A stretch of DNA of 64,000 bases from Acinetobacter sp. WCHAc010034 (lineage in GTDB: Bacteria; Pseudomonadota; Gammaproteobacteria; Pseudomonadales; Moraxellaceae), in assembly GCF_001696615.3 (NCBI RefSeq), contig NZ_CP032279.1:186001-250000 (forward strand). The letters are read 5' to 3'. The translations under genes were made by a program, and so were the position numbers. A model generated the notes under the pieces. It did no database searches. It had not been told where the DNA came from and saw nothing but the letters and a program-made list of their open reading frames with translations. Of the stretch, positions 19,247 to 33,870 are shown piece after piece; the stretch's first letter is position 1; each line of letters begins with the position of its first letter.

Positions 19247-19260
19247 GTTTGGAACATCTT

Positions 19261-20080: not shown

Positions 20081-21340
20081 ATGAGGATGGTTTTGGAGCG
20101 TTTTACCTTTATTCAAAAAATTCAAGATTGGTCTGATCAATATCCTTGGCTGGAAATGCTGACTTCGCTCAGCATGGTTATTTTACTGGCCATTTTGGCG
20201 ACTTTTATCGCCAAACAGGTGGTTGTCCGCGGCATCCGCAAATTAATCGCCAAACTGCCCTTTTTCAATGATTCAATTATTGCCAGGCACAGCGTAATCC
20301 GCCGGATTACCAATATTGTGCCTGCTGTTGTGCTCATGAATGGTATTAAAACCGTGCCTCATGTGTCTGCAGAATTCATCAGCTTGGTGCAGACCGTATC
20401 ACAGGCCTTTATTTTCCTCACTATCGCCCTAGCCATCAGTGAAATGCTGAATATTTTCAATTTGGTGTATCAGCGCAATCCTAAGTCCAAAAACAAGCCG
20501 ATTAAGGGCTATCTGCAGCTGATCAAGCTGATCATCTTCATTGTCTGCGGCCTGATGATTTTAGGCACATTCCTGAAGAAAGACGTATTTACCCTGCTGG
20601 CCGGTTTTGGCGCCATGGCTGCCGTGCTGATGCTGGTGTTTCAAAATACCATCCTGTCTTTGGTCGCTTCGGTGCAGATTTCATCCTACGACATGGTGCG
20701 CATTGGCGACTGGATAGAAATGCCCTCCCTGAATGCCGATGGCGATGTCATTGATATGTCATTACATACGATTACCGTACAGAACTTTGACAAGACTTTG
20801 ACCACCATTCCAACCAATAAGCTGGTCACCGATACCTTTAAAAACTGGCGCGGCATGGCGGCGGCGGGCGTACGGCGCATTAAGCGCTCCATCTACATTG
20901 ATCAGGACTCTGTGCATTTCATGACTGACGATGAGCAGAAAAAGCTGAAGGAGTTTCTGCTGCTTGGTCAATACCTGAATGATAAGTCTGCGGAAATCGA
21001 GCAGTTTAACCAGAAGCTGAGCAACCCGGCGCACTATAATCAGCGCCGGCTGACCAATTTGGGGACATTCCGCGCCTATGTTGAGCTGTATTTAAAGCAG
21101 CATCCCGGCATTGCGCGGCATCAGTCCCTGATTATCCGCCAGCTGCAGCCGACCAGTGAAGGCCTGCCTTTGGAAATCTATGCATTTACCAACGTCACGG
21201 CATGGAAAGACTATGAAGCGATTCAGTCTGATATTTTCGATCACCTGATTGCGATTATTCCTGAATTCGGCCTGAAAATTTATCAGGCGCCTTCAGGTTC
21301 TGACCTGAAAGCCAGCCTGAGCAGACTGCAGGGAAATTAA
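20081..21340 (+). CDS. MscS-family mechanosensitive channel (YbdG-like)
   Basis: A 419-residue membrane protein. Four or five N-terminal membrane segments (from residue 25) lead to the MscS pore helix and beta domain: LLAGFGAMAAVLMLVFQNTI, then ISSYDMVRIGDWIEMPS and VQNFDKTLTTIPTNKLVTDT. The soluble C-terminal part contains the insert typical of the YbdG group. It would release solutes on hypo-osmotic shock. The first ATG (20081) and the ATG at 20087 are both possible; a GAGG lies right before the second. It ends before a bidirectional terminator. Confidence 0.88.
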   Translation: MRMVLERFTFIQKIQDWSDQYPWLEMLTSLSMVILLAILATFIAKQVVVRGIRKLIAKLPFFNDSIIARHSVIRRITNIVPAVVLMNGIKTVPHVSAEFISLVQTVSQAFIFLTIALAISEMLNIFNLVYQRNPKSKNKPIKGYLQLIKLIIFIVCGLMILGTFLKKDVFTLLAGFGAMAAVLMLVFQNTILSLVASVQISSYDMVRIGDWIEMPSLNADGDVIDMSLHTITVQNFDKTLTTIPTNKLVTDTFKNWRGMAAAGVRRIKRSIYIDQDSVHFMTDDEQKKLKEFLLLGQYLNDKSAEIEQFNQKLSNPAHYNQRRLTNLGTFRAYVELYLKQHPGIARHQSLIIRQLQPTSEGLPLEIYAFTNVTAWKDYEAIQSDIFDHLIAIIPEFGLKIYQAPSGSDLKASLSRLQGN

Positions 21341-21423
21341 CAGCCAAATGTAAAAATGCCCCATCTAAGCGCATTCTGCACTTTGCATAGAACAGTCAAA
21401 CTGCCTAATGGCTTTTCTTCATT

Positions 21424-21458
21424 AAAAAAACCGCCTAATCATACAATTAGGCGGTTTT
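21424..21458. terminator. Bidirectional terminator between MscS and DUF2147 genes
   Basis: AAACCGCCTAAT pairs with ATTAGGCGGTTT across a short loop, with A-rich sequence before and T after, so it can serve both convergent genes. Confidence 0.85.
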
Positions 21459-21474
21459 CCCTATTCAGCTCAGC

Positions 21475-21942
21475 CTACATATCCGTATGCTTTTTCCAAG
21501 TCATCGTGCTCACCGCATTGGCATTCTTTGCCTTGCCATAGACTTTCATTTGATCCCCTGCCAGATTCAGGCTAGCATCAATCGTATAAAGATGCCCATC
21601 TTGCGGATTAACCCAGATGCCCTGACTGAATTGCTTATTGCTGGAGCCGGCAACCAGCCCTTTCAGCGCTTCCATGCCTAAAATAGGCTGATTTTTCAGT
21701 GCACCCTGACATTTGCTGCAAAGCTCGGAACTTGGGGCGCCCGGCAAAGGGCGGTTTTTTGTAATAACCGCGCTGTATTGCTGTGTTTTAGAATTCTTGC
21801 GGATGACGATATCTGAAACATAATAGCCGGTACGGTCATCAATCACTTTCCATGTGCCAATCAACGGGTCAAAAGGCATGGCGGATAAGGGGCTCATCAG
21901 CCCGCATAACAGCGCAGCTGCGCCAAAAAACTTAAGGTTCAT
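21475..21942 (-). CDS. Exported DUF2147 protein
   Basis: A 155-residue secreted protein. The signal peptide MNLKFFGAAALLCGLMSPLS(AMP) is followed by DPLIGTWKVIDDRTGYYVSD, the start of DUF2147, with the two-cysteine ELCSKCQG segment and the ending GDQMKVYGKAKNANAVSTMTW. Proteins of this family are small periplasmic beta-barrel-like domains without known activity. It stands alone and ends at the shared terminator. Confidence 0.85.
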   Translation of the reverse strand: MNLKFFGAAALLCGLMSPLSAMPFDPLIGTWKVIDDRTGYYVSDIVIRKNSKTQQYSAVITKNRPLPGAPSSELCSKCQGALKNQPILGMEALKGLVAGSSNKQFSQGIWVNPQDGHLYTIDASLNLAGDQMKVYGKAKNANAVSTMTWKKHTDM

Positions 21943-22179
21943 AAAGATATTTACAATTAGGGGAAGAAAAATACAGCAATGTAAAAATGGCCGAATTATA
22001 GCAACTATTTTTTAATCGACGTCAATTATTTCATTAAAATTAAACATATAGTTGATAGCAGAGTTTAAAAACAAACCAAATATTAAAATCATGAAAGCGC
22101 CGGCTCAAGCTGCATGGCGGTTTCCTTTTGTCAATTTGCATCTATAATTCATAGCAGCATAACCACAATAAGATTAACG

Positions 22180-22527
22180 ATGAAACTGGAACTACCCCTT
22201 GCCCTGCTGCTCGCGCTGGCTTTCACTGGCTGTCAAAAGCAGCAGGCTGAAGATGCAAAGCCTGACTCTGCCATTGCCGCGCAATTTGAAAAATCGGACG
22301 CCGTTATTGGCGCTTATCTGGATAAGCTGGACAGCCCAGAAACGCCTAAAGGCGAAAAGACTCAAATTCTCTGCAAGGACTACCCCGCCGAATACAAAAC
22401 CAATTACATGCCGGCTTTGCTTCAATTGGCGCCTAAAGATTACACGGAGGATAAGCTGGCCACAGATTTAGAAATTGCTTTGGACTACTACAAAGACAAA
22501 TTCAAAATCAGTTGTGAAAAAGCATAA
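22180..22527 (+). CDS. Small lipoprotein, unrecognised
   Basis: A 115-residue protein from the ATG at 22180, chosen because it places a lipoprotein signal directly at the N-terminus: MKLELPLALLLALAFTGC, with the lipobox LAFTGC and lipidation at Cys18. An upstream ATG (22114) would bury it. The mature part is charged and probably helical (VIGAYLDKLDSPETPKGEKT), with two further cysteines (ILCKDYP, KISCEKA). No family recognised. Confidence 0.7.
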   Translation: MKLELPLALLLALAFTGCQKQQAEDAKPDSAIAAQFEKSDAVIGAYLDKLDSPETPKGEKTQILCKDYPAEYKTNYMPALLQLAPKDYTEDKLATDLEIALDYYKDKFKISCEKA

Positions 22528-22706
22528 AGATGTGAGCTGACTGCCCAGCATTCTGCCTTATTTATACATAAAGTGATTCAACAGGCGCTGAACTTCCCAC
22601 GGCGCATTTTATGCAAAGTTTCAAGACAAAGGTTTTGCCACTAAATCTGAAAGTGCCGCATAGAAATTTAAGATATACTCAGGCTTAAAATACAGGGGCA
22701 TTATTC

Positions 22707-22923
22707 TTGAGCTATCCGAAAAACCCGCTTAACTTAAAAAGCCGCTTAAGCCATATTATATTTTCTTCAGCTTTTATTCTTTACCCGGCTGGCATGCAAA
22801 ATGCCTATGCCAATAAACTGTATTTACCCGTTGGCTATGATGCATTCTGCGGATTACCTGTGTTTACCGGGCAAAATCCTCAAATTGCTACAGCCGAAAA
22901 AGACCAGTTCGGAAATAAAATTA
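22707..22923 (+). pseudogene. 5' part of an exported protein gene, cut by an IS1016-like element
   Basis: The ORF starts at 22707 (a possible non-ATG start) and reads a signal-like stretch, SHIIFSSAFILYPAGMQNAYA, then NKLYLPVGYDAFCGLPVFTG and EKDQFGNKI, up to the left end of the IS. I do not recognise the protein. The open frame to the right of the IS (23646-23768) may or may not be its tail. Confidence 0.5.
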
Positions 22924-23634
22924 GGGGCTGTACTAGATTAGGTTAAATTTGACACCAAAACCGCAATGTTTTGAGCTGCTGTTTTGGTGTTCCATAATTG
23001 AATCTAAACTCACATTCTTTCAAAAACAAGGGAAAAGGTTGTTTAGGAATACCATTGTATTTTCTCAATACCCTTTTAGCTTGATTCCAAAAATTCTCTA
23101 TCCCATTAATGTGATTTTTACCTTCTGAAAACAGCAAAGAATGATTGATTCTTTCATGGTAAAAACCACTTACATCAAGTGCATTGTAGCTGCGATAACA
23201 ATCCGTATAAACAATACTGTCAGGTGCTATTTTATTAATAATTACAGGCATTAGAGTTATCGCTTTAGTATCAGAAACAACCTTGGTGTACACCTTTCCA
23301 CCACGCTTTAAAATACCAAATACAGCAACTTTACCAGAAGCCCCACGACCGCGTTTACCCTTACGTATCCCACCAAAATAACTTTCTTCCAACTCCACCT
23401 GTCCGTCGAATATTTCAGTGGCTTCTTGTTCTAAATAGCAGGCTATAACTTGCCTAATTTTAGTGTAGAACAGTGCTGCTGAATTAGGATGAATATCCAA
23501 TAAATCAGCAGCGGAACGGGCTGTAACTTCAAGTACAAAAAAATCAAGCAGCCTTAACTGTACTTTTCTATTTAACTTACAATTAGATATCTTCATTTTT
23601 CTAGACTAACATAATGCTAATCTAGTACAGCCCC
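22924..23634. mobile_element. IS1595-family element, IS1016 group
   Basis: A 711-bp element with perfect 18-bp inverted repeats, GGGGCTGTACTAGATTAG at 22924-22941 and its complement at 23617-23634. Size and ends fit IS1016-like elements of Moraxellaceae and Neisseriaceae. The expected 8-bp target duplication is not seen (TAAAATTA left, TATATCTT right), so the flanks were rearranged. Confidence 0.9.
22943..23596 (-). CDS. IS1595-family (IS1016-type) transposase
   Basis: A 217-residue intact transposase with ISXO2-like DDE domain: ELEESYFGGIRKGKRGRGAS, KVAVFGILKRGGKVYTKVV, SIVYTDCYRSYNALD and NHINGIENFWNQAKRVLRKY. The frame fills the IS between its ends. Confidence 0.92.
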   Translation of the reverse strand: MKISNCKLNRKVQLRLLDFFVLEVTARSAADLLDIHPNSAALFYTKIRQVIACYLEQEATEIFDGQVELEESYFGGIRKGKRGRGASGKVAVFGILKRGGKVYTKVVSDTKAITLMPVIINKIAPDSIVYTDCYRSYNALDVSGFYHERINHSLLFSEGKNHINGIENFWNQAKRVLRKYNGIPKQPFPLFLKECEFRFNYGTPKQQLKTLRFWCQI

Positions 23635-23645
23635 TATATCTTTGA

Positions 23646-23768
23646 TGTGGTAACGTCGCCAACTCAAACATTAGCCAAACTGGCTGGAAAATTTTAAACG
23701 GCAATCGTCAAGCCTGTGATTGCTTGCCAGGTGGAAATAGTACGAAATATCAAAAGAAGAAAAGTTGA
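23646..23768 (+). pseudogene. Tail of an unrecognised protein, right of the IS
   Basis: An open frame without a start reads GNVANSNISQTGWKILNGNR, then QACDCLPGGNSTKYQKKKS and a stop. It is cysteine/glycine-rich and protein-like. A competing frame (23635-23697) reads YIFDVVTSPTQTLAKLAGKF. Which of the two belonged to the gene cut at 22923 cannot be decided from the sequence. Confidence 0.35.
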
Positions 23769-23769
23769 T

Positions 23770-24099
23770 TCAACTTCTTTTCAAATCGAATTTTTCAAGA
23801 TGACATTGTTTCATATACAGAAACAGCGGAAGCCCTACAGAAGCTCCCCCCATAAATGATGCGGCTATAGGAATCCATAATCTTTTCATTTTAAGATTTT
23901 TACCTTCATTCATAACCATAAATACAATAACGATTACCGTTACAACGACATCTAGCCATGCAAAAGCTGCTAATGGATTTTCAGTGATTTGCCGAAAAAA
24001 TAGAGAAAAATTAAGTCCATATTTAGTCAACCACAGTATAAATTGTGAAAATGGCAGTGCTACTCCTATTAGGGTTAATAATGCATATGTTGTTTTCAT
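23770..24099 (-). CDS. DUF2834 membrane protein
   Basis: A 109-residue protein with three hydrophobic segments. It starts MKTTYALLTLIGVALPFSQF and continues ENPLAAFAWLDVVVTVIVIV, VFMVMNEGKNL and WIPIAASFMGGASVGLPLFL, the DUF2834 pattern. The role of this family is unknown. The gene is AT-rich like the accessory region. It lies between the IS1016-like element and the first dif-like site and could be either the last core gene or part of the imported segment. Confidence 0.75.
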   Translation of the reverse strand: MKTTYALLTLIGVALPFSQFILWLTKYGLNFSLFFRQITENPLAAFAWLDVVVTVIVIVFMVMNEGKNLKMKRLWIPIAASFMGGASVGLPLFLYMKQCHLEKFDLKRS

Positions 24100-24228
24100 A
24101 ATTATTTCTGGGCCTATAAGCTAATTGATATAAGTTCCATTTTTATAATCGGAGCTGTTCTATGAGCGTCGATTACTTAATTCATTAATAATATGGCGTT
24201 CTCCATTTATATTATTAATTCTTCCTGA

Positions 24229-24256
24229 AATTAACACAATACACGTTATACAAAAC
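24229..24256 (+). other. pdif-like XerD/XerC site 1 (D|C orientation)
   Basis: AATTAACACAA, centre TACACG, TTATACAAAAC. Against the Acinetobacter dif-type consensus as I recall it (ATTTAACATAA, 6 bp, TTATACGAAAT) each arm matches 9 of 11. It is the weakest of the three sites with a 6-bp centre. Confidence 0.6.
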
Positions 24257-24291
24257 AGCCCTGTAAGCCCTCAATTGAGGGCTTGTTCTTT

Positions 24292-25368
24292 TCAGGATGG
24301 GCGGCTAACCCATGCCGCTGTCTTTCCTATTTTGCTTTTGATATCGGTGTTTGGAATATTCCAATGCTGATTCAATGTAATAAACCGCTCCAAATCAAGC
24401 CGCTCGGCTCTAAGGAAATTCAGCATTTCAGCAGACATATCCAGTTTTTTTGCCAACCATCGCCATTTTAAAATCGGCTGAAGTAACTTTAACGAAATAA
24501 AGTGGCAAGGTGCCTTGACCTGCAGATGCTCTGCAATCATCTCAATCAACTCCTGAAAAGAAACTTGCTCTGGATTGGCCACTAGAATTTCCTGCCGATG
24601 CGTACTTGGATCTTGGGCAGCTTGAATTATGGCATCAACTAGCATCGTCACCGAAACCAGTGGTAAATAGTGCTGCCGCGTTCCAGGAATAGCCGTCATT
24701 TTCCCTTGTTTTAATTGCTGGATAAGATGCACAATCGGTTGATTAGATGGAATTTCCCCTGTCATTTCATCGCCAATGACCGTGGCAGGATGGATAACGG
24801 TCCATGGGATATTATATTGAGCAGCATGTTTAACCCAAGTGAAATGCCCTTGAATTTTAGATGCTTCATATGCTCCCAATCCAGCATAGACTCGTGACCA
24901 ATCGGTCTGCTCTATACGATCACGATAGATGCCAGCTGCCTGCAAATGCTCATTCATGGTCAACATATAGCCTGATAGATGTACTGCTCGTTCTAACTGG
25001 CAATGCTTACCAACACCTTCTAACAACAGCTCAAGCCCATTGACATTAACAGCCTTAGCCTGCTGCATTGTTAAATTCCATGCAAATAAGGCACTGGTAT
25101 TGTAAAGATAATTGACTGCTTTGAGCTGCTGCCAGTCCTGCTTGGATAGTCCTAAATTCGGCAGAGTAACATCACCCTGAATAAAGTTTAACTGTTGATG
25201 AGAAATGCCTTGATGTGTCAGCCAATGCTGAAGCTGCGGGGCTTGCTGATCGACATTACGGCATAGGGCAAACACTTGAGCATTTCCTCTCAGCAGGCGC
25301 GCGATTAGAAATTTACCGATAAATCCTGTTGCCCCCACTACGAGAGCAGTCTGATTTGAAGCGTGCAT
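24292..25368 (-). CDS. NAD-binding SDR/epimerase-like oxidoreductase
   Basis: A 358-residue extended short-chain dehydrogenase. The Rossmann motif VVGATGFIGKFLIARLL lies near the N-terminus; VNYLYNTSALFAWNLT, then TDWSRVYAGLGAYEASKIQG (YxxxK catalytic pair) and TVIHPATVIGDEMTG follow, as in atypical SDRs. An ATG at 25431 is open but lies in the -35 box of the MerR-type promoter at 25401-25431 and cannot be the start. The ATG at 25368 (MHASNQTALVVGATG) has an AGAG upstream. It faces and is probably controlled by the MerR gene next to it. Substrate unknown. Confidence 0.82.
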   Translation of the reverse strand: MHASNQTALVVGATGFIGKFLIARLLRGNAQVFALCRNVDQQAPQLQHWLTHQGISHQQLNFIQGDVTLPNLGLSKQDWQQLKAVNYLYNTSALFAWNLTMQQAKAVNVNGLELLLEGVGKHCQLERAVHLSGYMLTMNEHLQAAGIYRDRIEQTDWSRVYAGLGAYEASKIQGHFTWVKHAAQYNIPWTVIHPATVIGDEMTGEIPSNQPIVHLIQQLKQGKMTAIPGTRQHYLPLVSVTMLVDAIIQAAQDPSTHRQEILVANPEQVSFQELIEMIAEHLQVKAPCHFISLKLLQPILKWRWLAKKLDMSAEMLNFLRAERLDLERFITLNQHWNIPNTDIKSKIGKTAAWVSRPS

Positions 25369-25400
25369 GAATGTGTACTCTATTGAATTGTTCATACTTA

Positions 25401-25431
25401 AGCTAAAGTATGGAGTACACTCTATGGTCAA
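25401..25431 (-). promoter_or_regulatory. MerR-type promoter of the SDR gene
   Basis: On the minus strand TTGACC and TTAGCT are separated by 19 bp. The spacer carries the dyad GAGTGTACTC. It sits between the divergent SDR and MerR genes. Confidence 0.8.
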
Positions 25432-25470
25432 GTAGTTTTGAAAAATTATTAATGCAGAGGGATTTTATAA

Positions 25471-25890
25471 ATGCTGATTGGCGAACTATCACAACAGATA
25501 AATATGAGCCGGGATACCATCCGCTTTTATGAAAAAATGCAGTTGATTCAGCCATTAATTCGAAATAATGGCTATAGGGATTATCCTGAACAAACCCTTC
25601 AACAGTTGCAACTAATACAGATTGCGAAGAATCTAGGGTTTACCCTTGCTGAGATCAGGCAGATCATTCATTTAGTGAATGAAAGCGAGATTCCTGCAGA
25701 ACAGTTTCAGGAAATTTTGCAGGATAAATTAGGCAAAATTCAGGAAAAAGTCGAACAATTGCAGCAGATGCAGGCGATGCTTGAAAATCTGATAAAGGGT
25801 GAACTTTGCCCGCTAAGAAAAGACTGTGATGTAGTGAAAATATCCTTTGGGGGAGACACGGCTCACCTAGCCAACAGAGAGCCCAACTGA
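25471..25890 (+). CDS. MerR-family transcriptional regulator
   Basis: A 139-residue regulator. Residues 1-70 are the MerR winged helix (MLIGELSQQINMSRDTIRFY, then GYRDYPEQTLQQLQLIQIAK), followed by a long coiled-coil dimer helix (LGKIQEKVEQLQQMQAMLEN). The C-terminus has two cysteines in CPLRKDCDVV. This type lies next to NAD(P)-dependent oxidoreductases in many proteobacteria and senses organic or reactive compounds. It faces the SDR gene, whose promoter has the 19-bp spacer such regulators act on. Confidence 0.88.
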   Translation: MLIGELSQQINMSRDTIRFYEKMQLIQPLIRNNGYRDYPEQTLQQLQLIQIAKNLGFTLAEIRQIIHLVNESEIPAEQFQEILQDKLGKIQEKVEQLQQMQAMLENLIKGELCPLRKDCDVVKISFGGDTAHLANREPN

Positions 25891-26073
25891 GCCTTGAATC
25901 AAAAATGGATAAACGATTAGAGTATCTGAATTAACACTTCCGCAGCTCCCTGAAACTCTTGCAAAAGCAATCACAGTCAAAAATTTTAGTGCTGGACTGA
26001 AATCTATGCGGAAAGTTAATCCAAGCAGTAAAACATTGCTTGAATAGGGAGCATAGAACGTGAAAAATCATTT

Positions 26074-26105
26074 AAAAAGCCCAACCGGTTAGGACTAGGC
26101 TTTTT
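26074..26105. terminator. Bidirectional hairpin terminator after the MerR gene
   Basis: AAAAAGCC pairs with GGCTTTTT around an inner AACCGGTT. A and T tracts lie on both sides. It lies 40 bases before dif-like site 2. The upstream 180 bases hold nothing recognisable. Confidence 0.65.
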
Positions 26106-26146
26106 GCTAACTCTTAAGCCAATGATTTATATTGGAATAAAAATAT

Positions 26147-26174
26147 ATTGCGCATAACCTGTCTTATGTTAATT
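26147..26174 (+). other. pdif-like XerC/XerD site 2 (C|D orientation)
   Basis: ATTGCGCATAA, centre CCTGTC, TTATGTTAATT. Against ATTTCGCATAA and TTATGTTAAAT the arms match 10 of 11 each. It is inverted relative to sites 1 and 3 and lies 10 bases past the 3' end of the beta-lactamase gene. Confidence 0.8.
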
Positions 26175-26184
26175 TTAGAGAAAT

Positions 26185-27354
26185 TTAATTATCTTTTAAT
26201 GTCTCAAAAACACTATATGCAGCCTTAATGCGATCAATATTTGGTATCTTTTTATTCATTAACATAACCAGTCCAAATCCTTCTTCTGGAATAAATAAAA
26301 TATACGCCCCAAAGCCATCAGTAGATCCTGTTTTATGAAAAACTTTAGATTTTGGTTGTGATAATTCTTTTACAACGGAGTTTGATCCCAACAAAATTTG
26401 TTTTGAATTACTAGCCTGTAGAATTTCTGAAGTTGTCGGATAAGAAAACATCTCCCATCCAAGTGCTTGTGTCATACCACTATCTGCAACTTTAAAATAT
26501 CCTTTATGTGTATCCAGTAGAACTTTTCTCATAGCAGGGCTATTTGTATCTAGATTAAGATTTGCATTTACGAAGTTAAGCATATCTGGCAGGGTTGATT
26601 TAACTCCATAAGCTTCATCAGATAATGGGCCGGGATTAACTCGAACTGGTTGATCTTTTTCATCATAACCAAAAGCATAGTTTATTTTTTGTTCTTCTGG
26701 AACATTGACGTATGTATGTTTCAAATTAAGTTGAGGGAAAATAGTCTTCTCTAATAGTGAGGAGAAAGGGACACTCATCGATTTTGCAGTTAGATACCCA
26801 AAAAAACCTATACTGGGATTTGAGTATTCGCGATAAGTACCAGAAGGATTCTTGGCTTTCCAATTTTTGAAATACTCTAATATTTGCTTATCCGTTTTGA
26901 CATGATCAAGAAATTGCAGTGGCAAATTTCCACTTGTATAAGTTAATAGCTCTAATAAATTTACCTTATCAATTTCGGAACTTTTTAAAGCTGGTAAATA
27001 TTTACTAAGATGGTCGTCGAAAGATATTTTTCCTTGGTTATTAGCATACGTACCTGAAACAGCAGTAAAAATTTTACTTACAGAACCTAACTCAAAAAGA
27101 GTCTGTCCATTTACGCTTTTATTTTCTTCTCTAGATTGAACACCATAATACTTTTCATAATTTTTACCATTATGAATTATGCCTATCGCCATACCAGGTG
27201 CATAATACTGATCCATAAGCGGTTTAAATGATTGGGTTACGATCTTTTCAATATTTTTTTCATTTTGACTGACTGCATTTGCATGTAATTGCATGCCAAA
27301 ACCCATAAACATGGTAATTAAGCCTGCTTGACAAATTTGTTTTCTAGAAATCAT
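26185..27354 (-). CDS. Class C beta-lactamase (ADC-like cephalosporinase)
   Basis: A 389-residue secreted serine beta-lactamase with N-terminal signal peptide (to about residue 26, HANA). The class C motifs are complete: SVSK (Ser91, Lys94) in LFELGSVSKIFTA, YSN (Tyr177-Asn179) in GTYREYSNPSIGFFG, and KTG (Lys341) in HKTGSTDGFGAY. Phrases such as HTYVNVPEEQKINYAFGYDE and GVKSTLPDMLNFVNANLN recall the Acinetobacter ADC group, but many positions differ from the ADC sequence I remember. It hydrolyses cephalosporins in the periplasm. The gene is AT-rich, lacks an adjacent divergent ampR, and lies between inverted dif-like sites. Confidence 0.92.
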   Translation of the reverse strand: MISRKQICQAGLITMFMGFGMQLHANAVSQNEKNIEKIVTQSFKPLMDQYYAPGMAIGIIHNGKNYEKYYGVQSREENKSVNGQTLFELGSVSKIFTAVSGTYANNQGKISFDDHLSKYLPALKSSEIDKVNLLELLTYTSGNLPLQFLDHVKTDKQILEYFKNWKAKNPSGTYREYSNPSIGFFGYLTAKSMSVPFSSLLEKTIFPQLNLKHTYVNVPEEQKINYAFGYDEKDQPVRVNPGPLSDEAYGVKSTLPDMLNFVNANLNLDTNSPAMRKVLLDTHKGYFKVADSGMTQALGWEMFSYPTTSEILQASNSKQILLGSNSVVKELSQPKSKVFHKTGSTDGFGAYILFIPEEGFGLVMLMNKKIPNIDRIKAAYSVFETLKDN

Positions 27355-27642
27355 TAGTTCAAAATTAATCGGTAAAGAGTGCGTATATTCTCATTTTATA
27401 AATATTAAATATGTATTAATTTAATAACTTTTTATATAGAAGTTATCTAATCAACGTTTATTTAAAATAATGGTCGCTATACAAAATGTATTCTATAAAA
27501 CTTTTGTTTTTTCATATATTTAAAAACTTTTTACCAATCTCAAAAACAGCAAAAACCGGATTTTTTTATGTGCAGTTTTGATAGTTATTGCCAATAATTT
27601 GATTGTTTTTAGTCAAATTGGAACTTTTTTCAGTGTTCCTAA

Positions 27643-27868
27643 CCTTCCCTGGGAGAAAATTATCCCCTTTCTGAAATCCAAGAAGATGGAACAAAATTAT
27701 ATTATGCTTGTGTAGATGAAGAAATAATAGGAATAGAGCCAAGTGAAGGATGGTCTGATGAAAAAAACAGTCAAGTGTTACATTAGACAGGGATTAGAGA
27801 ATGTTTTAAAAGAACAACCAAATAGAAAGATAGAAATTGAAAAAATATTTAATAAATATAATTTATAG
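27643..27868 (+). pseudogene. Frameshifted remnant of an unrecognised protein
   Basis: Frame 1 (27643-27786) reads GENYPLSEIQEDGTKLYYAC, then VDEEIIGIEPSEGWSDEKN before a stop. From 27758 another frame reads KKTVKCYIRQGLENVLKEQP, then NRKIEIEKIFNKYNL and a stop at 27866. The frames cross at a run of seven A, so one base change there would make a single protein end. No start region is visible. The 288 bases before it (27355-27642) hold the beta-lactamase promoter region and nothing else I can support. Function unknown. Confidence 0.5.
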
Positions 27869-27901
27869 GCTCACAGTTTTAACTGTATTAAGAATTTCTA
27901 A

Positions 27902-27929
27902 AATTAACAAAATATATCTTATACGAAAT
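27902..27929 (+). other. pdif-like XerD/XerC site 3 (D|C orientation)
   Basis: AATTAACAAAA, centre TATATC, TTATACGAAAT. The XerD arm matches 9 of 11 and the XerC arm 11 of 11 of the recalled consensus. Together with site 2 it brackets the beta-lactamase gene as an inverted pair. Confidence 0.78.
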
Positions 27930-27990
27930 AGCCCTCAATTCACACACTGAATGCAAACAGTAATATACATTTCTGTTGACATTGAATGCG
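27919..27990. repeat. Imperfect repeat attached to dif-like site 3
   Basis: From TTATACGAAATAGC through TTCACACACTGAATGCAAAC to ATTGAATGCG it matches 29318-29400 except for a short insertion. Thus each of sites 3 and 4 carries the same downstream 60-70 bases. Confidence 0.75.
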
Positions 27991-28122
27991 TTGCGCAACA
28001 ATCAATCACATAAATGCCATTACAGTGTACTGACACTTGGAACAGCCTATTTCAAAATACTGAATTAGAAAGAATAAATAAAATAACCTCACATAGCGCG
28101 TATTATATTGATTTTATAAAAT

Positions 28123-29022
28123 TTAAAAATCTAATTTATAAAAATCCTGAATAGTTTTAGCACAACTTTCAATGACTAAGTCATTATCTTTTTTCCAAAT
28201 TAATTTGACTTCAGATTGGCTGCTTTTGTCGTTTATTGAGAGTAATTTTACATTCTTCGGGAGAATTGTAGAAAATTCTTCAGGTACGACACAGATACCA
28301 AGGCCATTTGCTACCAAATCCAATTGGGACAATTTTCTTGAGGAAATTCTGGATTTCTTTTGGCAAAATCCATTGCTTAAACAAAGATTAGAAGCTAAGT
28401 AACTTAATCCTCCTCGTTCAGAATGAGGTGTAGAAACAAATCTTAAATCTTTTAAATCACCGATATAAACACTGGTTTTATCATTGAAATTTTTATCAGA
28501 CGTTGAAGCAGCTACATATAGAGGAGCTGTATATAAACTTGTGGAATTTACCTCGTCTAAAGCATGGTAGACAGGAGGTCGAATAAAGCCAATGTCAATA
28601 TCACCACTTAATATTGCTTCAATTTGAGCCTCCGAAGAAATAGTATTAAGCTCGATATTTATTTTATATTTTTCACATAGCTGATCTAAAACCTGAATTT
28701 TTTTGTTATCTAAAATAATGCTGCTAGAGTGGCTGACTTTCACCGTTCTATTTTCCCCCCGGCTAATCCCCTTTGCTAATTCAATTGAATTACTGAAATT
28801 ATCAAGATTTTTTTTTAAGTTTTTATAAAGAACTGATCCAGCAAGGGTTAATTTGATTCTCTTATCAGATCTATCAAAAACACTAAAGCCCAGATCATCT
28901 TCTAAATTCTTTATTTGCCTGCTTAAGGCCGATTGGGCAATGAATAATTTTTCTGAGGCTGCGGTAAAGCTGCCTTCTTCGACAATAGTAATCAGATAAG
29001 TGCATTGTTTGAAAGTTAACAT
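28123..29022 (-). CDS. LysR-family transcriptional regulator
   Basis: A 299-residue LysR regulator, full length. The DNA-binding domain is MLTFKQCTYLITIVEEGSFT, then EKLFIAQSALSRQIKNLEDD and GFSVFDRSDKRIKLTLAG. The ligand domain includes IDIGFIRPPVYHALDEV and VANGLGICVVPEEF. The start MLTFKQCTYL resembles the CatM/BenM-like group, but the rest is divergent and AT-rich. It lies between dif-like sites 3 and 4 and faces a 44-codon ORF, 96 bases away. It is not divergent to the beta-lactamase, so it is unlikely to act as its AmpR. Confidence 0.87.
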   Translation of the reverse strand: MLTFKQCTYLITIVEEGSFTAASEKLFIAQSALSRQIKNLEDDLGFSVFDRSDKRIKLTLAGSVLYKNLKKNLDNFSNSIELAKGISRGENRTVKVSHSSSIILDNKKIQVLDQLCEKYKINIELNTISSEAQIEAILSGDIDIGFIRPPVYHALDEVNSTSLYTAPLYVAASTSDKNFNDKTSVYIGDLKDLRFVSTPHSERGGLSYLASNLCLSNGFCQKKSRISSRKLSQLDLVANGLGICVVPEEFSTILPKNVKLLSINDKSSQSEVKLIWKKDNDLVIESCAKTIQDFYKLDF

Positions 29023-29118
29023 ATCTCATAATTAGATAGATGGTTGTTTTTTACATATTAGATTAGATGATTAAATTCTTATATCTTTTTATAACAATTT
29101 TTCCAGGTCGAATTAAAA

Positions 29119-29253
29119 ATGGCTATTAAAAACAAAATTATTGTATTCATTGTTATGGTTGTCATATGTTTTTTAGCCCAATCTTATGATGCTTATACTG
29201 GTGTTAATAACCCTGAAAAAGATGCACAGAACATTGACCCCCTAATAGATTAA
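29119..29253 (+). CDS. Small membrane or exported peptide, 44 residues
   Basis: Reads MAIKNKIIVFIVMVVICFLA, then QSYDAYTGVNNPEKDAQNID and a short end. One hydrophobic N-terminal segment could be a signal anchor. It lies opposite the LysR gene in the usual target position. It may be a real small protein or the cut N-terminus of a longer one. No family recognised, and no strong ribosome site (AGG 14 bases upstream). Confidence 0.4.
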   Translation: MAIKNKIIVFIVMVVICFLAQSYDAYTGVNNPEKDAQNIDPLID

Positions 29254-29301
29254 CAGATACTTTTCAACTCATTATCAAATAGCTCAGATCACTCTTGCTC
29301 C

Positions 29302-29328
29302 ATCTAACATAAGGACGTTATACGAAAT
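29302..29328 (+). other. Degenerate pdif-like site 4 (D|C orientation, 5-bp centre)
   Basis: ATCTAACATAA, centre GGACG, TTATACGAAAT. Arms match 10 and 11 of 11, but the centre is one base short, so recombination here is doubtful. Confidence 0.6.
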
Positions 29329-29400
29329 AGCTCCTTTGAAGACTATTAATTCACACACTGAACGCAAACAGTAATATGCACTTTTGTTGAAATTGAGTGT
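29318..29400. repeat. Imperfect repeat attached to dif-like site 4
   Basis: Second copy of the segment at 27919-27990 (TTCACACACTGAACGCAAAC, then GTAATATGCACTTTTGTTGA). Confidence 0.75.
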
Positions 29401-29446
29401 GCTGTGCAGCCTAAAAGCAGGATGCACAGCAATAAAGCAGCCAGCC

Positions 29447-30033
29447 TCACTTGGCTGCCCACTTCTTATAAGCACTGGCCAGCTTGGTGTCATAGCTGTT
29501 TTTTGCATATCCCTTGCCGTTATAGCCCAATGCAAATGCCTTCCAGTCCTTATTTTTCAGGGCATTGATCAGGCCATTCACTTTGATATAGCGACACATT
29601 GCATTCAGCTGGGAAGCCTCATCCTGGTACATCGCATTGATAAAGGTCTGCAGGGACTTATAGCCAAGCGATTTCCAGTGATAGCCATCACCTGCCCAAG
29701 GCCCCAAGAACAGGACTCTAGCGCCGATTCACGGTGATATTCAGCGGCCGTAGCCAAACGGCCATGCTGCGCAGAATATAAGCCGTAGCCGCCGGACGTT
29801 TTGCTGCAGAGATTCGGCTGTTCAATTTCCATTTTTTCGGCAATGCTGAAAAGCTTGCCGGCGATCAGGCGCTGGCGCATCACATGGCGCTCAAAAAGAA
29901 TTACCAGAGTGCTGTCCGAATTAAATCCAGATCCCCGGCACTCAACTTCGTGCACCGCTTTTAACGCAGCTGCCTCTACGCCCAGCGCTTTAGCCTGAGC
30001 GCCTATTTGCGCATCAGTCAGTTTTTTACTCAT
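29447..30033 (-). pseudogene. Phage endolysin (DUF3380-type N-acetylmuramidase), one-base frameshift
   Basis: The first frame (from 30033) reads ALGVEAAALKAVHEVECRGS, LVILFERHVMRQRL and ESCSWGLGQVM, the start of a muramidase with the catalytic Glu in the EVECRG/FERH region. After QVM the correct continuation (GYHWKSLGYKSLQTFINAMY, then AFALGYNGKGYAKNSYDTKL) is one frame over. Restoring one G in the GGC triplet near 29684-29687 gives a single 195-residue protein of the usual length. It would cut peptidoglycan during phage lysis. It follows a holin-like gene by 3 bases. Confidence 0.85.
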
Positions 30034-30036
30034 AAA

Positions 30037-30300
30037 TCATTCTCCCCCTTTGCCATTTCCCCAGATTGCGAGGAATGCCGCTTTAATTTCAGAAATTACC
30101 TCAGGCAGCGGCTTGCCTTTCAGCAGCGCAATCGACTGATACAGAATGCCGATGGCTAAAAGGCCGAACACCGCAAACATAAGCATGATGAAGCCCTGAT
30201 ACATCGTGGACGTTTTGAGCATTTCAAAATGCTCAATAAATGCCGAACTGCCATATAAGCTGACCGTTACGCTAGCCAGAAACTTGCCGATGACGCCCAT
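30037..30300 (-). CDS. Holin-like phage membrane protein
   Basis: From the ATG at 30300: MGVIGKFLASVTVSLYGSSA, FEMLKTSTMYQGFIMLMFAV, FGLLAIGILYQSIALLKG, then a charged tail ending GNGKGGE. Two membrane spans, small size and position directly before the endolysin suggest a holin. The open frame extends upstream to 30381 only because a transposase fragment happens to be in frame; that extension is not phage sequence. Confidence 0.6.
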   Translation of the reverse strand: MGVIGKFLASVTVSLYGSSAFIEHFEMLKTSTMYQGFIMLMFAVFGLLAIGILYQSIALLKGKPLPEVISEIKAAFLAIWGNGKGGE

Positions 30301-30367
30301 GGAAGAGCCTTTCTTTGCCTGATGTTTTTCATAGTCGAGATGATCCGAAAGTTCAATATTGAATGTA

Positions 30368-31210
30368 GGGCATGTTCTCATTTGTCCTTACACCAAATAA
30401 ATATGCATGCTAGTCGCAACATGGCTTTATAATTTCTAGCCAACTTATCATATCTTGTCGCTATTGCCCGAAAGTGTTTTAAACGCGCAAATGCATTTTC
30501 AACTAAATGCCGTAATTGATATAGATAACCATCAAATTCCGGATTACCTTTAAAGCTGTTGGTTTTTCTTGGTATCACTGGGATCATATCAAGAATTCTT
30601 GCACATTCTCTGAGCTTTTCGGAGTCGTATCCTTTATCCGCTACCAGATAATCAGCCTTTCCAACCAATTCTATTAATTTCGGCGCAATTTGACCGTCAT
30701 GGACTTCCCCCCCAGTGATGTCAAAATCAAGCGGATATCCGTTCGCATCGACGGCCAAGTGTATTTTTGTAGTTATTCCACCTCTTGAGGTGCCAATTGC
30801 TCTATTTTCACTGTGCCTAGCTCCACTTGCATGCTGATGAGCGCGAATGCAGCTTCCATCAATGAATACCCATTCTGTATCCAGCAGGCCTCGTAATTTA
30901 AAAAAAACTTATCCCATAATCCATTTATCGCCCAACAATTAAAACGGTTGTAAGCTATTTGCCAAGGACACAAGTCTTCAGGGATGTCGCGCCAAGCAGC
31001 ACCAGTACGAAATTTCCACAGTATGGCTTCCATGATATTTTTAGAGCGATAACAGCCATAAAACTGCACGGTTTCTTGGATTTACAGCCAAATCTCATCG
31101 GTTAAAACTCGGCGTGTCATGTTAAAACATCAATAAAACAAATAAAAAAGCAGATTCTATACAGTTATTTTTATACTTACATATTTAAATTTTAAAATGA
31201 GAATACGCCC
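30368..31210. mobile_element. IS5-family element, IS427 group, with TA target duplication
   Basis: An 843-bp element with imperfect inverted ends, GGGCATGTTCTCATTT and (complement) GGGCGTATTCTCATTT. TA lies on both sides, the short target duplication usual for this group. It was inserted into the IS256 transposase gene. Confidence 0.88.
30378..31120 (-). pseudogene. IS427-type transposase, with an in-frame stop
   Basis: The frame from ATG 31120 reads MTRRVLTDEIWL, then TAA, then IQETVQFYGCYRSKNIMEAI. After FRTGAAWRDIPEDLCPWQ and KFF a run of T on the coding strand marks the -1 frameshift normally used in this group, leading to KLRGLLDTEWVFIDGSCIRA and the last part DYLVADKGYDSEKL, LVENAFARLKHFR. 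The acidic residues are present, but the stop at codon 13 probably disables it unless initiation occurs later. Confidence 0.8.
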
Positions 31211-31415
31211 TAGTTTCAATCATGAATTTTTTAAAAACTGCTGTAATTTGGTTTAAGTCTTCTGGCGTTTTCAGACCTTTAGCCAATTCAGCAGCCATAC
31301 TTCTGATTGTTGCTTCATCCATATGAAGTACCTTTTGTAATTATCCTCTGAAGGATAAATGAAAATTAAGTACTTACACAAAATTTAGAATAGTCCCGCA
31401 TTTGGAATTTTTGGT

Positions 31416-31790
31416 TTATTTACATTGGTTCTCTGGTTGGTCTAATTGCTCACGTAACCATTCGGAATCCTCTTGCAGGCTTTCTTTGGTGTATCCCATT
31501 GCTCGAACACCTTCTGATGCTCCCTCATATTCTTTAAATCTGCTTAAGACAAAATCATAAAGTTCAATATTCTCTTTCCACCCTTTGCAATCTAGAGTTT
31601 TGAGTTTATTAGACCTAGTAAGATCTTCTTGCTCATTCTTTGCCTCTGTAGAAATCACTTGATTTCTGTCCGATTGTGTTTGAACGTATCGCTCCATTAA
31701 CTTGTAATATTTAAGCTCAAAGTCTTTTTGAGCTGAAGCAAAACAGCTGCCTGATACAATTACATAAATTAGAAATGCGAAAAGCTTCAT
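31416..31790 (-). CDS. Exported hypothetical protein
   Basis: A 124-residue protein: signal peptide MKLFAFLIYVIVSGSCFASA, then a charged helical body (FELKYYKLMERYVQTQSDRN, IELYDFVLSRFKEYEGASEG) with cysteines in LDCKGW and at the end NQCK. GSCFAS could be mistaken for a lipobox, but cleavage after ASA fits better. No family recognised. It is AT-rich and lies inside the accessory region just left of phage-like debris. Confidence 0.6.
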   Translation of the reverse strand: MKLFAFLIYVIVSGSCFASAQKDFELKYYKLMERYVQTQSDRNQVISTEAKNEQEDLTRSNKLKTLDCKGWKENIELYDFVLSRFKEYEGASEGVRAMGYTKESLQEDSEWLREQLDQPENQCK

Positions 31791-31901
31791 TGTTGTTTTC
31801 TGCCTGATTAAAATAGTGGTGATTATTATATTTAAACACCCAATAATTCAAAGGTTTTTTATCTAAAGCCTTTAGCTCCGCCAATGTGTACCCGCGCTTA
31901 T

Positions 31902-32327
31902 TCAGCGGATCGGCAAATTTCTCAATTGGAAATTTGCCAGATTTATACAGTTCGTACTTTTTCTTACCCAGCCAAGTGCGCTGAAAAAACTCATCCGACT
32001 GTTCAAAAAACTCTTGGAATGATGTGTTTGCATCCAGCTGGTTAATAATTTTCTGGCTTCATCTTTAACATCCGCCACAATCAGCCGCGTGCGGAGCGCT
32101 TCTCCTTTTTCTGGCGGCACCCGCTTGCCATTTTGATCTTTCCACTTGTGTTTCGCATCCCGCGTGATCCAAACCTCAGCCTTACCGACATGCAGCGTTA
32201 CTTTTTGTCCTTTATATTTAATGGCTTTTATTTCACGCGTTTCCAGCCGGTCAGCGGCTTCTCCTGTTTTTACTGCCTGTCCCTGATACTCAACGGAATT
32301 TCCTTCTTTCCCGCGCGAACCAGCCAT
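31902..32327 (-). pseudogene. Frameshifted accessory gene of unknown function
   Basis: The first frame reads GNSVEYQGQAVKTGEAADRL, IKYKGQKVTLHVGKAEVWIT and VADVKDEARK. Then a missing A in an AAAA run near 32057-32062 shifts the frame. The one-over frame continues naturally as NQLDANTSFQEFFEQSDEFF, QRTWLGKKKYELYKSGKFPI and DPLNKRGYTLAELKALD to about 31865. The fused protein looks soluble and higher in GC than its neighbours, in the style of phage structural genes here, but I do not recognise it. Confidence 0.5.
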
Positions 32328-32509
32328 TTGAATCCCTGATGATTCATCTGCCTAAGATGGGCAATTGAATCTCCTTCACGGTCAATTTGAATGAAAATCT
32401 GCTTAAACCTAATTCAGATTAATTAAAGATAAAAATAATTTTAAAACATAGAGTTAAAGCTTAAACTCTTTTACAATTCTCATCTTCATTATGCTGTGGT
32501 CAATAAAAA

Positions 32510-33223
32510 ATGAAGAAATTAATAGGCTTATGTGTATTACTGACGCTAATGGGATGTAGTAAGCAGAAAACTCCTGTCAGTGTAGAAGAGGAGCAACAAA
32601 AAGCAGAAGACAGTACCCAATTTACTGAGAGTTTGGAAGTTGAGCCTGAGTTATTCGGATTTCATTCTTATGAATTGGGCGAGTTGGTTAAAAATTTAAT
32701 GCCTGATGCTCAAAAAAATCAAATGCTTGAAGTTTGGCAATGGGATGATTTAGCCAATGATGCAAAAATTAGATGGGTCACGGAAGGTTATAAAGAAAAA
32801 TATAATTCTAATACTTTAAGCACCATGTCTTCTCGTGAAGGTTTGGTGCGTGTACATCAATTGGGCGAGCGTGTTTCACAATTGAAAGACCGTAAATATG
32901 AAGTGCCTTGGTCAATTCGTTATGAAGGTAAAGATGCAAAATTTGGAGTAAATTTAATTACTTTACAGCCCAAAACTAATGCCATGATCAGCTTTAATGA
33001 TCCTATCCCATCACTTAAAAAACAAGGCATAAAGATTACTGCTATTTGTCGCCAAAGTTTTGCTGGAGAAGTGATCGATGTTTCTTTATTGGAAGCCCGA
33101 AAAAAACAACCTGTCTATATCATTGATCGTTCTAGTGGTGGTTCGGGAGGGAAAACTCGTTGGCTGGAACTTAGTTTGCAAAATTTAAGTACTGAATGGT
33201 GTCCAGATGACAGCACTGAATAG
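32510..33223 (+). CDS. Lipoprotein, unrecognised
   Basis: A 237-residue protein with lipoprotein signal MKKLIGLCVLLTLMGCSKQK (lipobox LMGC, Cys16). The mature part begins with an acidic linker and continues VRVHQLGERVSQLKDRKYEV, YEGKDAKFGVNLITL and QPVYIIDRSSGGSGGKTRWL. No known motif. It is AT-rich and ends at a small hairpin followed by T-rich sequence. Confidence 0.65.
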   Translation: MKKLIGLCVLLTLMGCSKQKTPVSVEEEQQKAEDSTQFTESLEVEPELFGFHSYELGELVKNLMPDAQKNQMLEVWQWDDLANDAKIRWVTEGYKEKYNSNTLSTMSSREGLVRVHQLGERVSQLKDRKYEVPWSIRYEGKDAKFGVNLITLQPKTNAMISFNDPIPSLKKQGIKITAICRQSFAGEVIDVSLLEARKKQPVYIIDRSSGGSGGKTRWLELSLQNLSTEWCPDDSTE

Positions 33224-33241
33224 ATATAAGTAAACTAAAAA

Positions 33242-33259
33242 AGCAGGATTCGTCCTGCT
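33242..33259 (+). terminator. Weak intrinsic terminator
   Basis: AGCAGGA and TCCTGCT flank TTCG; the following bases are T-rich but broken (CCTTATTTTGGTCTTTTTT). Confidence 0.55.
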
Positions 33260-33288
33260 CCTTATTTTGGTCTTTTTTCAGTAGTGTC

Positions 33289-33503
33289 ATGCATAAGCAA
33301 GTTGATGTTTTAATTGCAGAGCTTCAAAAGACCTTTGATGAATATAGTGATGATCTAGGCATCTTTTCACTTGATGAATCTGGTGTTTCCATTGAAATTA
33401 AAACCAAATCTAGTGAATACAGCTATAGCCTTGAACAGTTAAAAAAAAGCTGAATGTTGAACTTGAAGATCCGCTGATTCAGAGTTTAAAGGAGGTGTCT
33501 TGA
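33289..33503 (+). pseudogene. Small accessory gene with a frameshift in an A8 run
   Basis: From ATG 33289: MHKQVDVLIAELQKTFDEYS, DDLGIFSLDESGVSIEIKTK, EYSYSLEQLKKS and stop. One frame over after the eight A at 33441-33448 the text continues KLNVELEDPLIQSLKEVS to a TGA at 33501. A strong ribosome site (AAAGGAGGTG) and an ATG overlapping this stop (33503) follow, but that next gene is cut after 20 codons by the junction with the integrase fragment. Function unknown. Confidence 0.5.
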
Positions 33504-33775
33504 TGGAAGATATGCAAATACACTCCATCCGTTTCACTAAGATAAAGATCAATAGCATCCGCTAACCGCATGTTTGCTTCATGCTGATTGCCGTACAGAA
33601 TATTAGGGTTAGCCTCGATTTCTACTTCGCGTTTTTTAAGCCAGCTATCTGCCTTGCGTCTAGAATTGAAAGTTTTACTTTCTCTAAATATCGGGTAGTC
33701 TTTGCGGTGAACACGAATTACCGCTCTATACCTCAAAGTCCCCTCAGCAAGCGTTCTGGTAAAAATTGAACCCAT
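33479..33775 (-). pseudogene. Tyrosine recombinase (integrase) N-terminal fragment
   Basis: The ORF reads MGSIFTRTLAEGTLRYRAVI, ESKTFNSRRKADSWLKKREV and EANMRLADAIDLYLSETDG, typical of the arm-binding and core-binding start of a phage integrase. After about residue 84 the sequence is unrelated. The catalytic domain (R..HxxR..Y) is missing. It marks the right edge of the accessory region. Confidence 0.75.
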
Positions 33776-33840
33776 AAATTTGCACCTTTTTCAATTTTTC
33801 CATTATGGTGCAAATTAGGGGGCAAATAGAAACGCGTTAG

Positions 33841-33870
33841 CACAGCTAAACAGGTGTTTACACAGCTAAA
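33841..33870. repeat. Pair of 10-base direct repeats upstream of the integrase fragment
   Basis: CACAGCTAAA occurs at 33841-33850 and again at 33861-33870, 20 bases apart. Possible integrase arm sites or leftovers of an attachment region. Confidence 0.4.

What the first reader, a model, noticed from the sequence alone, without database searches (positions are those of the whole stretch)
26147..27929. Class C beta-lactamase gene between inverted pdif-like XerC/XerD sites
Site 2 (ATTGCGCATAA, CCTGTC, TTATGTTAATT) and site 3 (AATTAACAAAA, TATATC, TTATACGAAAT) each have two 11-base arms and a 6-base centre, and they face opposite ways around the gene. Plasmid pdif modules carrying OXA-type carbapenemase, tet or msr/mph genes in Acinetobacter have this layout (established knowledge). 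An ADC-like ampC in such a module beside core chromosomal genes would be unusual and would explain how a foreign-looking AT-rich cephalosporinase arrived.
Basis: partly seen in the sequence, partly recalled or inferred. Interest (0 to 1): 0.87.

Follow-up and report, generated by a model that had tools for sequence, protein, structure and literature searches.

The report
Old AmpC dif module in chromosome
An Acinetobacter chromosome carries a beta-lactamase gene packed between two inverted recombination sites, a known kind of small mobile gene unit; this copy looks old and partly decayed, while two relatives of it sit on plasmids of the same genome.

Summary
The finding is real, but its right edge and gene name need correcting. 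The gene (26185-27354, minus) is a class C beta-lactamase of the MCA family (801 bits, cut-off 750), not ADC. In 45 of 55 pairwise comparisons of MCA modules, homology stops within -2 to +6 bp of that second site's outer edge, not at 27902-27929. The unit is 1,341 bp with XerD arms inside: a "D module". Two more copies sit on plasmids of the same genome; 13 of 15 other MCA loci have a site exactly 10 bp after the stop codon; 0 of 17 ADC-type and related loci examined have one.

The window copy is at most 84% identical to any other copy, branches outside the plasmid copies, and its upstream site is altered in both arms. I read it as an old chromosomal resident.

Chromosomal dif modules, some with resistance genes, are already published; my searches found no paper placing blaMCA in one. 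New member of a known kind. A tempting rule, that chromosomal modules cluster near the terminus, fits this genome (7 of 8 clusters) but not other Acinetobacter chromosomes (4 of 32).

The parts
26147..27487 (.). The D-type dif module (XerD arms inside) carrying blaMCA, 1,341 bp
   Evidence: Match to plasmid C11 of the same genome runs exactly 26147-27487; right edge conserved in 45 of 55 pairs
26147..26174 (+). Site S2, ATTGCGCATAA-CCTGTC-TTATGTTAATT, 10 bp past the stop codon
   Evidence: 20 of 22; same 10-bp offset in 13 of 15 other MCA loci
26185..27354 (-). blaMCA, class C beta-lactamase, 389 aa, with SVSK, YSN and KTG motifs
   Evidence: NF033406 801.2 bits; PF00144; motifs; nearest solved structures are ADC enzymes
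27355..27459 (-). Non-coding stretch between start codon and S2b, alike in the MCA modules aligned
   Evidence: Alignment of 4 MCA upstream stretches; no sigma-70-like site found in it by a simple scan
27460..27487 (-).
   Evidence: 18 of 22, 19; module edge
24229..24256 (-). Site S1, GTTTTGTATAA-CGTGTA-TTGTGTTAATT; with S2 it bounds a C-type unit (XerC arms inside)
   Evidence: 19 of 22
24292..25431 (-). SDR/NAD-binding oxidoreductase gene inside the S1-S2 unit
   Evidence: PF07993, PF01370
25471..25890 (+). MerR-family regulator gene inside the S1-S2 unit
   Evidence: PF13411, PF09278
26014..26146 (.). Recurrent XerC-side flank of S2 with a terminator-like hairpin (26074-26105)
   Evidence: Matches the same place beside sites on many Acinetobacter plasmids and at other chromosomal clusters of this genome
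27902..27929 (-).
   Evidence: 21 of 22
28123..29022 (-). LysR-type regulator gene between S3 and S4
   Evidence: PF00126, PF03466; no NCBIfam model above cut-off among the 25 shown of 53
29302..29328 (-). Site-like sequence S4 with a 5-base centre, ATTTCGTATAA-CGTCC-TTATGTTAGAT
   Evidence: 20 of 22, 21; shares its XerC-side flank with S3

Best explanation
This is a D-type dif module (XerD arms inside) carrying blaMCA. The host's XerC and XerD would treat its two sites as joints at which whole modules are inverted, exchanged or fused between Acinetobacter replicons. The likely route into the chromosome is site-specific fusion of a module-bearing plasmid with a dif-like chromosomal site under FtsK control, followed by loss of the rest. 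Shown here: the anatomy, the module edges, relatives of the module on two plasmids of the same genome and on plasmids of other Acinetobacter, no class C hit between the same flanks in the relatives examined, and two Xer-type recombinase genes. Inferred: the recombination itself, the plasmid route, the age and present mobility. My odds: 0.85 that it is such a module, 0.75 that it is an old resident, 0.55 that it is now largely immobile.
For: Site scores beyond simulated chance and the reversed-pattern control. Homology with C11 spans exactly 26147-27487; right edge within -2 to +6 bp of S2b in 45 of 55 pairs; all 10 pairs with pKO16_MAC also stop 2-4 bp inside the left edge. Downstream site 10 bp past the stop in 13 of 15 other MCA loci, both sites at the expected spacing in 11 of 15, none in 17 ADC-type and related loci examined. 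Window protein at most 84% identical to any row and outside a supported group (99/93) that holds the 5 plasmid copies kept in the tree, while the C11 and C8 proteins are in groups marked identical with copies from other strains. S2b changed at two XerC bases and one XerD base. Gaps of 74, 83, 283 and 1,026 bp in G005, G015, G009 and G002 where this genome has 12.6 kb. Third-position G+C 0.218 against 0.600 and 0.645 in the two flanking genes. Two hits to Xer-type model NF001399, 363.9 and 276.2 bits, cut-off 279.
Against: In 34 of 55 pairs the left match runs on 99-150 bp past S2, so the left edge rests on the 10 pairs with pKO16_MAC, 9 with avistercoris (27 bp past the edge in 3 of them) and the C11 pair. 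Ten of 55 pairs overrun or fall short at the right edge. S2b, S3 and S4 face the same way, so the array is not a clean chain of alternating modules. S2 is near consensus, and S2b's centre CGACCA differs by one base from CGCCCA, CGGCCA or CGATCA at other sites of this genome, so loss of mobility is not shown. The window copy's place differs a little between the two trees. No recombination, binding or expression was tested.
Confidence: 0.7

Rival explanations
1. The module reached this chromosome recently and is still mobile, exchanging between the chromosome and plasmids of the same cell.
For: Two further MCA modules on plasmids C8 and C11 of the same genome; S2 near consensus; S2b's centre is one base from centres at several other sites; two Xer-type genes.
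Against: The window module is only 81-86% identical in DNA to the plasmid modules over the aligned stretches, which are 88-99.7% identical among themselves; no site with a centre identical to that of S2 or S2b in the lists; S2b altered in both arms.
Confidence: 0.12
2. The gene and its surroundings arrived by another route (homologous recombination after DNA uptake, an IS element or a prophage), and the dif-like sites were carried along passively.
For: The 12.6-kb insert also holds an IS1595 transposase gene, IS5-type transposase ORFs and a muramidase fragment that recurs at three other chromosomal places; S2-S2b is embedded in other foreign-looking DNA.
Against: The edges of the MCA unit coincide with sites across replicons, which these routes do not predict for the unit itself, though they could explain its last move.
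Confidence: 0.13
3. It is an ordinary resident chromosomal ampC and the sites are chance or unrelated repeats.
For: In the sister group (62-66% identity) some members have no sites (2 of 6) and several lie on long contigs.
Against: Chance is excluded; module edge conserved across plasmids; 0 of 17 ADC-type and related loci have sites (43 further class C loci were not fetched); no class C hit between these flanks in the 18 relatives.
Confidence: 0.04

Closest known systems
Plasmid dif (pdif) modules of Acinetobacter Rep_3/OrfX plasmids (PMC13141974, passages)
   Same: 28-bp sites in inverted pairs, C and D modules, short cargo unit
   Different: Here the unit is chromosomal, its cargo is a class C enzyme, and one site is altered in both arms
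Chromosomal dif modules and dif module islands (PMC12907356, parts 1-3 of 6; PMC6449649, passages)
   Same: Extra dif-like sites in Acinetobacter chromosomes bounding cargo, some with resistance genes shared with plasmids
   Different: The modules reported there in strain M10 are over 99% identical to plasmid ones; this one is 81-86% identical to the plasmid modules compared
MCA family class C beta-lactamase (NCBIfam NF033406; listed on pAYTCM-8 in PMC10486904, passages)
   Same: Same protein family by curated cut-off (801.2 of 750 bits)
   Different: A divergent member, at most 84% identical to the other copies in the tree
ADC family chromosomal cephalosporinases of Acinetobacter
   Same: Class C fold and motifs; the best solved matches include ADC-7 and ADC-68
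   Different: About 55-59% identical; below the ADC cut-off (484.6 of 800); no sites at the ADC-type loci examined

Membership tests
dif/pdif module | 28-bp sites with XerC-like and XerD-like 11-base arms and 6-base centre | tested here: met
   S2 20 of 22, S2b 18-19 of 22; controls
dif/pdif module | The two sites are inverted around the cargo | tested here: met
   S2 plus, S2b minus, XerD arms inside = D module
dif/pdif module | The unit between the sites recurs in other contexts with breakpoints at the sites | tested here: met
   Right edge in 45 of 55 pairs; left edge in the pKO16_MAC pairs (10 of 10 within 4 bp)
dif/pdif module | XerC and XerD bind and recombine the sites | not testable with these tools
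   Published for other Acinetobacter sites (PMC11705084, passages)
dif/pdif module | C and D modules alternate along the array | tested here: inconclusive
   Holds for S1-S2-S2b; S2b, S3 and S4 face the same way
MCA family beta-lactamase | Score above the curated NF033406 cut-off | tested here: met
   801.2 of 750 bits
ADC family beta-lactamase | Score above the curated NF000425 cut-off | tested here: not met
   484.6 of 800 bits
AmpR-regulated ampC | Adjacent divergent ampR gene (recalled) | tested here: not met
   The LysR-type gene is on the same strand, 768 bp away across S2b and S3, with no NCBIfam model above cut-off among the 25 shown of 53

The most novel reading that the evidence does not exclude
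A lineage of Acinetobacter class C beta-lactamases (MCA and its 62-66% identical sister group) became dif-module cargo before that lineage diversified, long before clinical antibiotic use, and has left decaying 'fossil' modules in several chromosomes while plasmid copies stay intact. Support: paired sites in 11 of 15 MCA loci and 3 of 6 sister loci; a downstream site at the same 10-bp offset in A. albensis and in G125; altered or decayed sites in the window and in A. pragensis. Against: the upstream non-coding stretches of the two groups are not clearly alike, the 10-bp offset is 51 bp in two sister loci, and the tree does not reduce the 'both sites' label to one change (4 changes, root unknown), so separate captures remain possible.
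Probability: 0.45. Interest if true: 0.5.

Novelty: new member of a known kind. Interest (0 to 1): 0.36.

Why it matters
It adds a class C enzyme to the cargo of dif modules, which the papers read here describe with class D and class B beta-lactamases and with tetracycline, macrolide and aminoglycoside genes. One genome with an old chromosomal copy and two plasmid copies makes it possible to ask how such modules settle and decay. blaMCA is already called by resistance-gene software, so knowing its vehicle helps to predict where it is found. The case also warns against reading every chromosomal dif module as a recent event.

Tried and rejected
1. Terminus-clustering rule. In this genome 7 of 8 extra site clusters lie within 0.18 of the half-chromosome from the presumed dif (binomial p 4e-5; the 0.18 limit was chosen after seeing the data), which would fit FtsK control of Xer recombination. 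I tested it on 21 other Acinetobacter chromosomes, picked for having 1-3 contigs: 4 of 32 clusters lie that close and 17 of 32 lie in the origin-side 15% (with rounded chromosome lengths, <=2 mismatches against <=3 in this genome, dif of G154 taken as the antipode, and G042 without any site). PMC12907356 also reports an island far from its dif. Rejected as a general rule; kept as an unexplained feature of this genome.

2. Control by the LysR gene as an AmpR: rejected.

3. tRNA or known RNA as integration target: Rfam gave 0 matches at gathering scores in 21000-34500 and ARAGORN 0 genes in the window.

4. S3 and S4 as an attachment duplication made at the main dif: their shared XerC-side flank is not seen beside the presumed main dif; not taken further.

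5. A first tree was replaced. The two place the window copy slightly differently (with A. pragensis, one step nearer the plasmid copies); both put it outside the group that holds the plasmid copies. Left out of both trees: near-identical or duplicate rows L051, L053, L054, L057, L120-L122, L124-L126, L129-L134 and the fragment L058.

6. In one search the script labelled A. pragensis (L041) 'both', but its downstream match at 112 bp is not the expected one; the expected site at 10 bp looks decayed, so I count L041 as upstream only. The trees carry the script's label.

7. Naming the species: no tool gave it; the single genome-contig scan was used for MCA loci.

Full report
WHAT IS THERE. The window lies in C13 (3,630,637 bases) of a 3.84-Mb, 13-contig genome. 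The genus is Acinetobacter by inference: a same-genus handle coincides with a named record (G050:C8:242073 and A. defluvii NZ_CP029396.2:242073). No tool named the species. The ORF 26185-27354 (minus) is a 389-aa class C beta-lactamase with SVSK, YSN and KTG motifs. It passes the NCBIfam MCA model (801.2 bits, cut-off 750) and not the ADC model (484.6 of 800). The nearest solved structures include ADC-7 and ADC-68.

THE SITES. A scan for two 11-base arms with a 6-base centre finds S1 24229-24256 (-), S2 26147-26174 (+), S2b 27460-27487 (-) and S3 27902-27929 (-), and with a 5-base centre S4 29302-29328 (-). In 100 Markov sequences of 12 kb no 6-base-centre site scored 18 or more and 9 scored 17. 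The genome has 55 sites at <=3 mismatches against 0 for the pattern read backwards.

THE TRUE MODULE. The match to plasmid contig C11 of the same genome spans exactly 26147-27487; another MCA copy is on C8. Among 11 MCA modules compared pairwise, the right edge of homology falls within -2 to +6 bp of the outer end of the upstream site in 45 of 55 pairs; the other 10 overrun by 13-690 bp or stop 14 bp short. On the left, 34 of 55 pairs run on by 99-150 bp. That flank, with a terminator-like hairpin, also lies beside other sites on plasmids and in this chromosome. All 10 pairs with pKO16_MAC stop 2-4 bp inside the left edge, and the C11 pair stops at it. XerD arms face inwards, which is a D module in the terms of PMC13141974 (passages). 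To its left S1-S2 is a C-type unit holding an SDR gene and a MerR gene. To its right S2b, S3 and S4 face the same way, so units there are probably fused or partly lost.

DISTRIBUTION. One search covers 15 other MCA loci (>=78% identical) after dropping the window's own copy, five duplicates of the same loci (L121, L122, L124-L126) and one fragment (L058). The downstream site begins 10 bp after the stop in 13 of 15, and both sites are at the expected spacing in 11 of 15. The other four are L055 (record cut 116 bp upstream of the gene), L057 (no upstream site nearby; one lies 1,165 bp up), A. pragensis L041 (upstream 18 of 22; downstream site decayed at the same offset) and A. rudis L042 (none). 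In the sister group at 62-66% identity, 3 of 6 loci have both sites; 1 has the downstream site (17 of 22), with a perfect XerD arm upstream visible; 2 have none. Of 17 loci at 55-60% identity, ADC-type included, 0 have any site scoring 17 or more; 43 further class C rows were not fetched. In the genus search 73 of 175 genomes had a class C match at E <= 1e-60, and 7 of 175, this one included, had one at >=78% identity.

PLACE AND AGE. The flanking genes are an MscS-type channel (20081-21340) and an ABC transporter (33950-35815). The corresponding matches lie 74, 83, 283 and 1,026 bp apart in relatives G005, G015, G009 and G002, and about 12.6 kb apart here. In 10 of 18 same-genus relatives the two flanks lie on one contig within 12 kb; in the other 8 they are further apart, on different contigs or only one was listed. 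No class C hit listed for the 18 lies between or beside these flanks (the list was cut and 10 candidates per genome were scored). G011 has an MCA module on its 3.38-Mb contig at another place, and A. pragensis has one on a 101-kb contig whose flanks do not match the window. The window protein is at most 84% identical to any row of the tree and falls outside a supported group (99/93) that holds the 5 plasmid copies kept (L002, L003, L052, L055, L056) with L039, L040, L048 and L123. The C11 and C8 proteins are in groups marked identical with copies from other strains. S2b is altered in both arms; a change of another conserved XerD base was taken as a sign of a likely inactive site in PMC13141974 (passages). 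I infer an old, settling module beside two recently acquired plasmid copies. Low G+C (31.4%) is shared by the 10 other MCA modules measured (30.3-30.6%), so it marks the module and not the date.

HOW IT PROBABLY WORKS. A. baumannii XerC and XerD bind plasmid sites of this kind, and cleavage depends on the FtsK gamma domain (PMC11705084, passages). [quoted passage not shown] S2 (CCTGTC) and S2b (CGACCA) differ, so they should not act on each other. Movement would need fusion of replicons at matching sites and later resolution. No site with a centre identical to S2 or S2b is in the genome's lists, but several differ from S2b's by one base (CGCCCA, CGGCCA, CGATCA), so S2b may still have partners if its arms work. 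Two hits to an Xer-type recombinase model are present (363.9 and 276.2 bits, cut-off 279). Recombination, binding and expression were not tested. No sigma-70-like site was found between the start codon and S2b by a simple scan.

A RULE THAT FAILED. dnaA is at 1.94 Mb, the GC skew changes sign between the samples at 1-20,000 and 180,001-200,000, and the best candidate for the main dif is 85566-85593, centre TATATA. Seven of eight extra clusters lie near it, which invited an FtsK-based rule. In 21 other chromosomes it fails: 4 of 32 clusters near dif, 17 of 32 near the origin. The strain of PMC12907356 has its island 1.09 Mb from its main dif in a 2.90-Mb chromosome.

WHAT IS KNOWN. Extra chromosomal dif sites and modules were described in 2019 (PMC6449649, passages: 20 chromosomes, one without extra sites) and chromosomal resistance modules in 2026 (PMC12907356, parts 1-3 of 6). 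blaMCA appears as a gene name in PMC10486904 (on pAYTCM-8, which is L055 here; its pdif table is for another plasmid), PMC11724201, PMC11956268 and PMC10740832 (passages of each). The searches were 'pdif, Acinetobacter, XerC' (58 papers, 40 listed), 'blaMCA' (2), 'MCA family, class C beta-lactamase, Acinetobacter, MCA-1' (0), 'pdif, class C, lactamase, Acinetobacter, ampC' (4), 'dif module, cephalosporinase' (5) and 'bla MCA' (2). In the listings and passages I saw, no paper describes blaMCA or another class C gene as a dif module. Of the 4 and 5 papers, I looked at passages in two (PMC7885321, PMC12531904). Papers outside this open library were not searched.

VERDICT. A real element of a rightly recognised kind, with a misplaced right edge and a mistaken family name. 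New member of a known kind, moderately interesting for its age and its class C cargo.

Noticed in passing
L171-L183 (stretches of 13 other Acinetobacter chromosomes): Dif-like sites 90-185 kb from dnaA recur (14 clusters). By six-frame comparison the 13 stretches fall mainly into two shared neighbourhoods: L171-L173, L177, L178, L183 (with partial matches to L176 and L179), and L174, L175, L180, L182. L181 matched none at the threshold.
   Followed up: partly
G000:C13, clusters at 38.6-44.1, 68.8, 210-215, 363-365, 3394-3396, 3520-3527 and 3563-3564 kb: In this genome 7 of 8 extra site clusters lie near the presumed dif, unlike the other chromosomes tested. Several share the same XerC-side flanks, as if one integrated set had been broken up. 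Unexplained.
   Followed up: partly
L048 (MAG contig labelled Bdellovibrionales), 7850-9202: An MCA module with both sites sits 185 bp from the end of a 112-kb contig labelled Bdellovibrionales; transfer or a mixed assembly, not tested.
   Followed up: no
window 29392-30304: A muramidase-like fragment (ORF 29605-30033, PF11860) recurs at C13:63412-64325 (94%), with shorter matches at 525880-526577 (87%) and 3562708-3563350 (86%), two of them near site clusters.
   Followed up: no
window 8254-9291: Stretch 89-93% identical to parts of plasmid C9 and also present at C13:94126-95163; its ORF 8308-9240 reads like a transposase (not scanned), so probably an insertion sequence shared with the plasmid.
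   Followed up: no
window 47204-48319: Plasmid C5 holds a homologue of this alcohol-dehydrogenase-like gene, 85% identical in protein (function from reading only).
   Followed up: no
window 24292-25890: The SDR-MerR pair inside the S1-S2 unit matches G011:C1:1328331-1329803 and G016:C19:7663-9131 at about 70%; in G011 no site within 2 mismatches is listed near it, so it may have been enclosed by sites in this genome.
   Followed up: no
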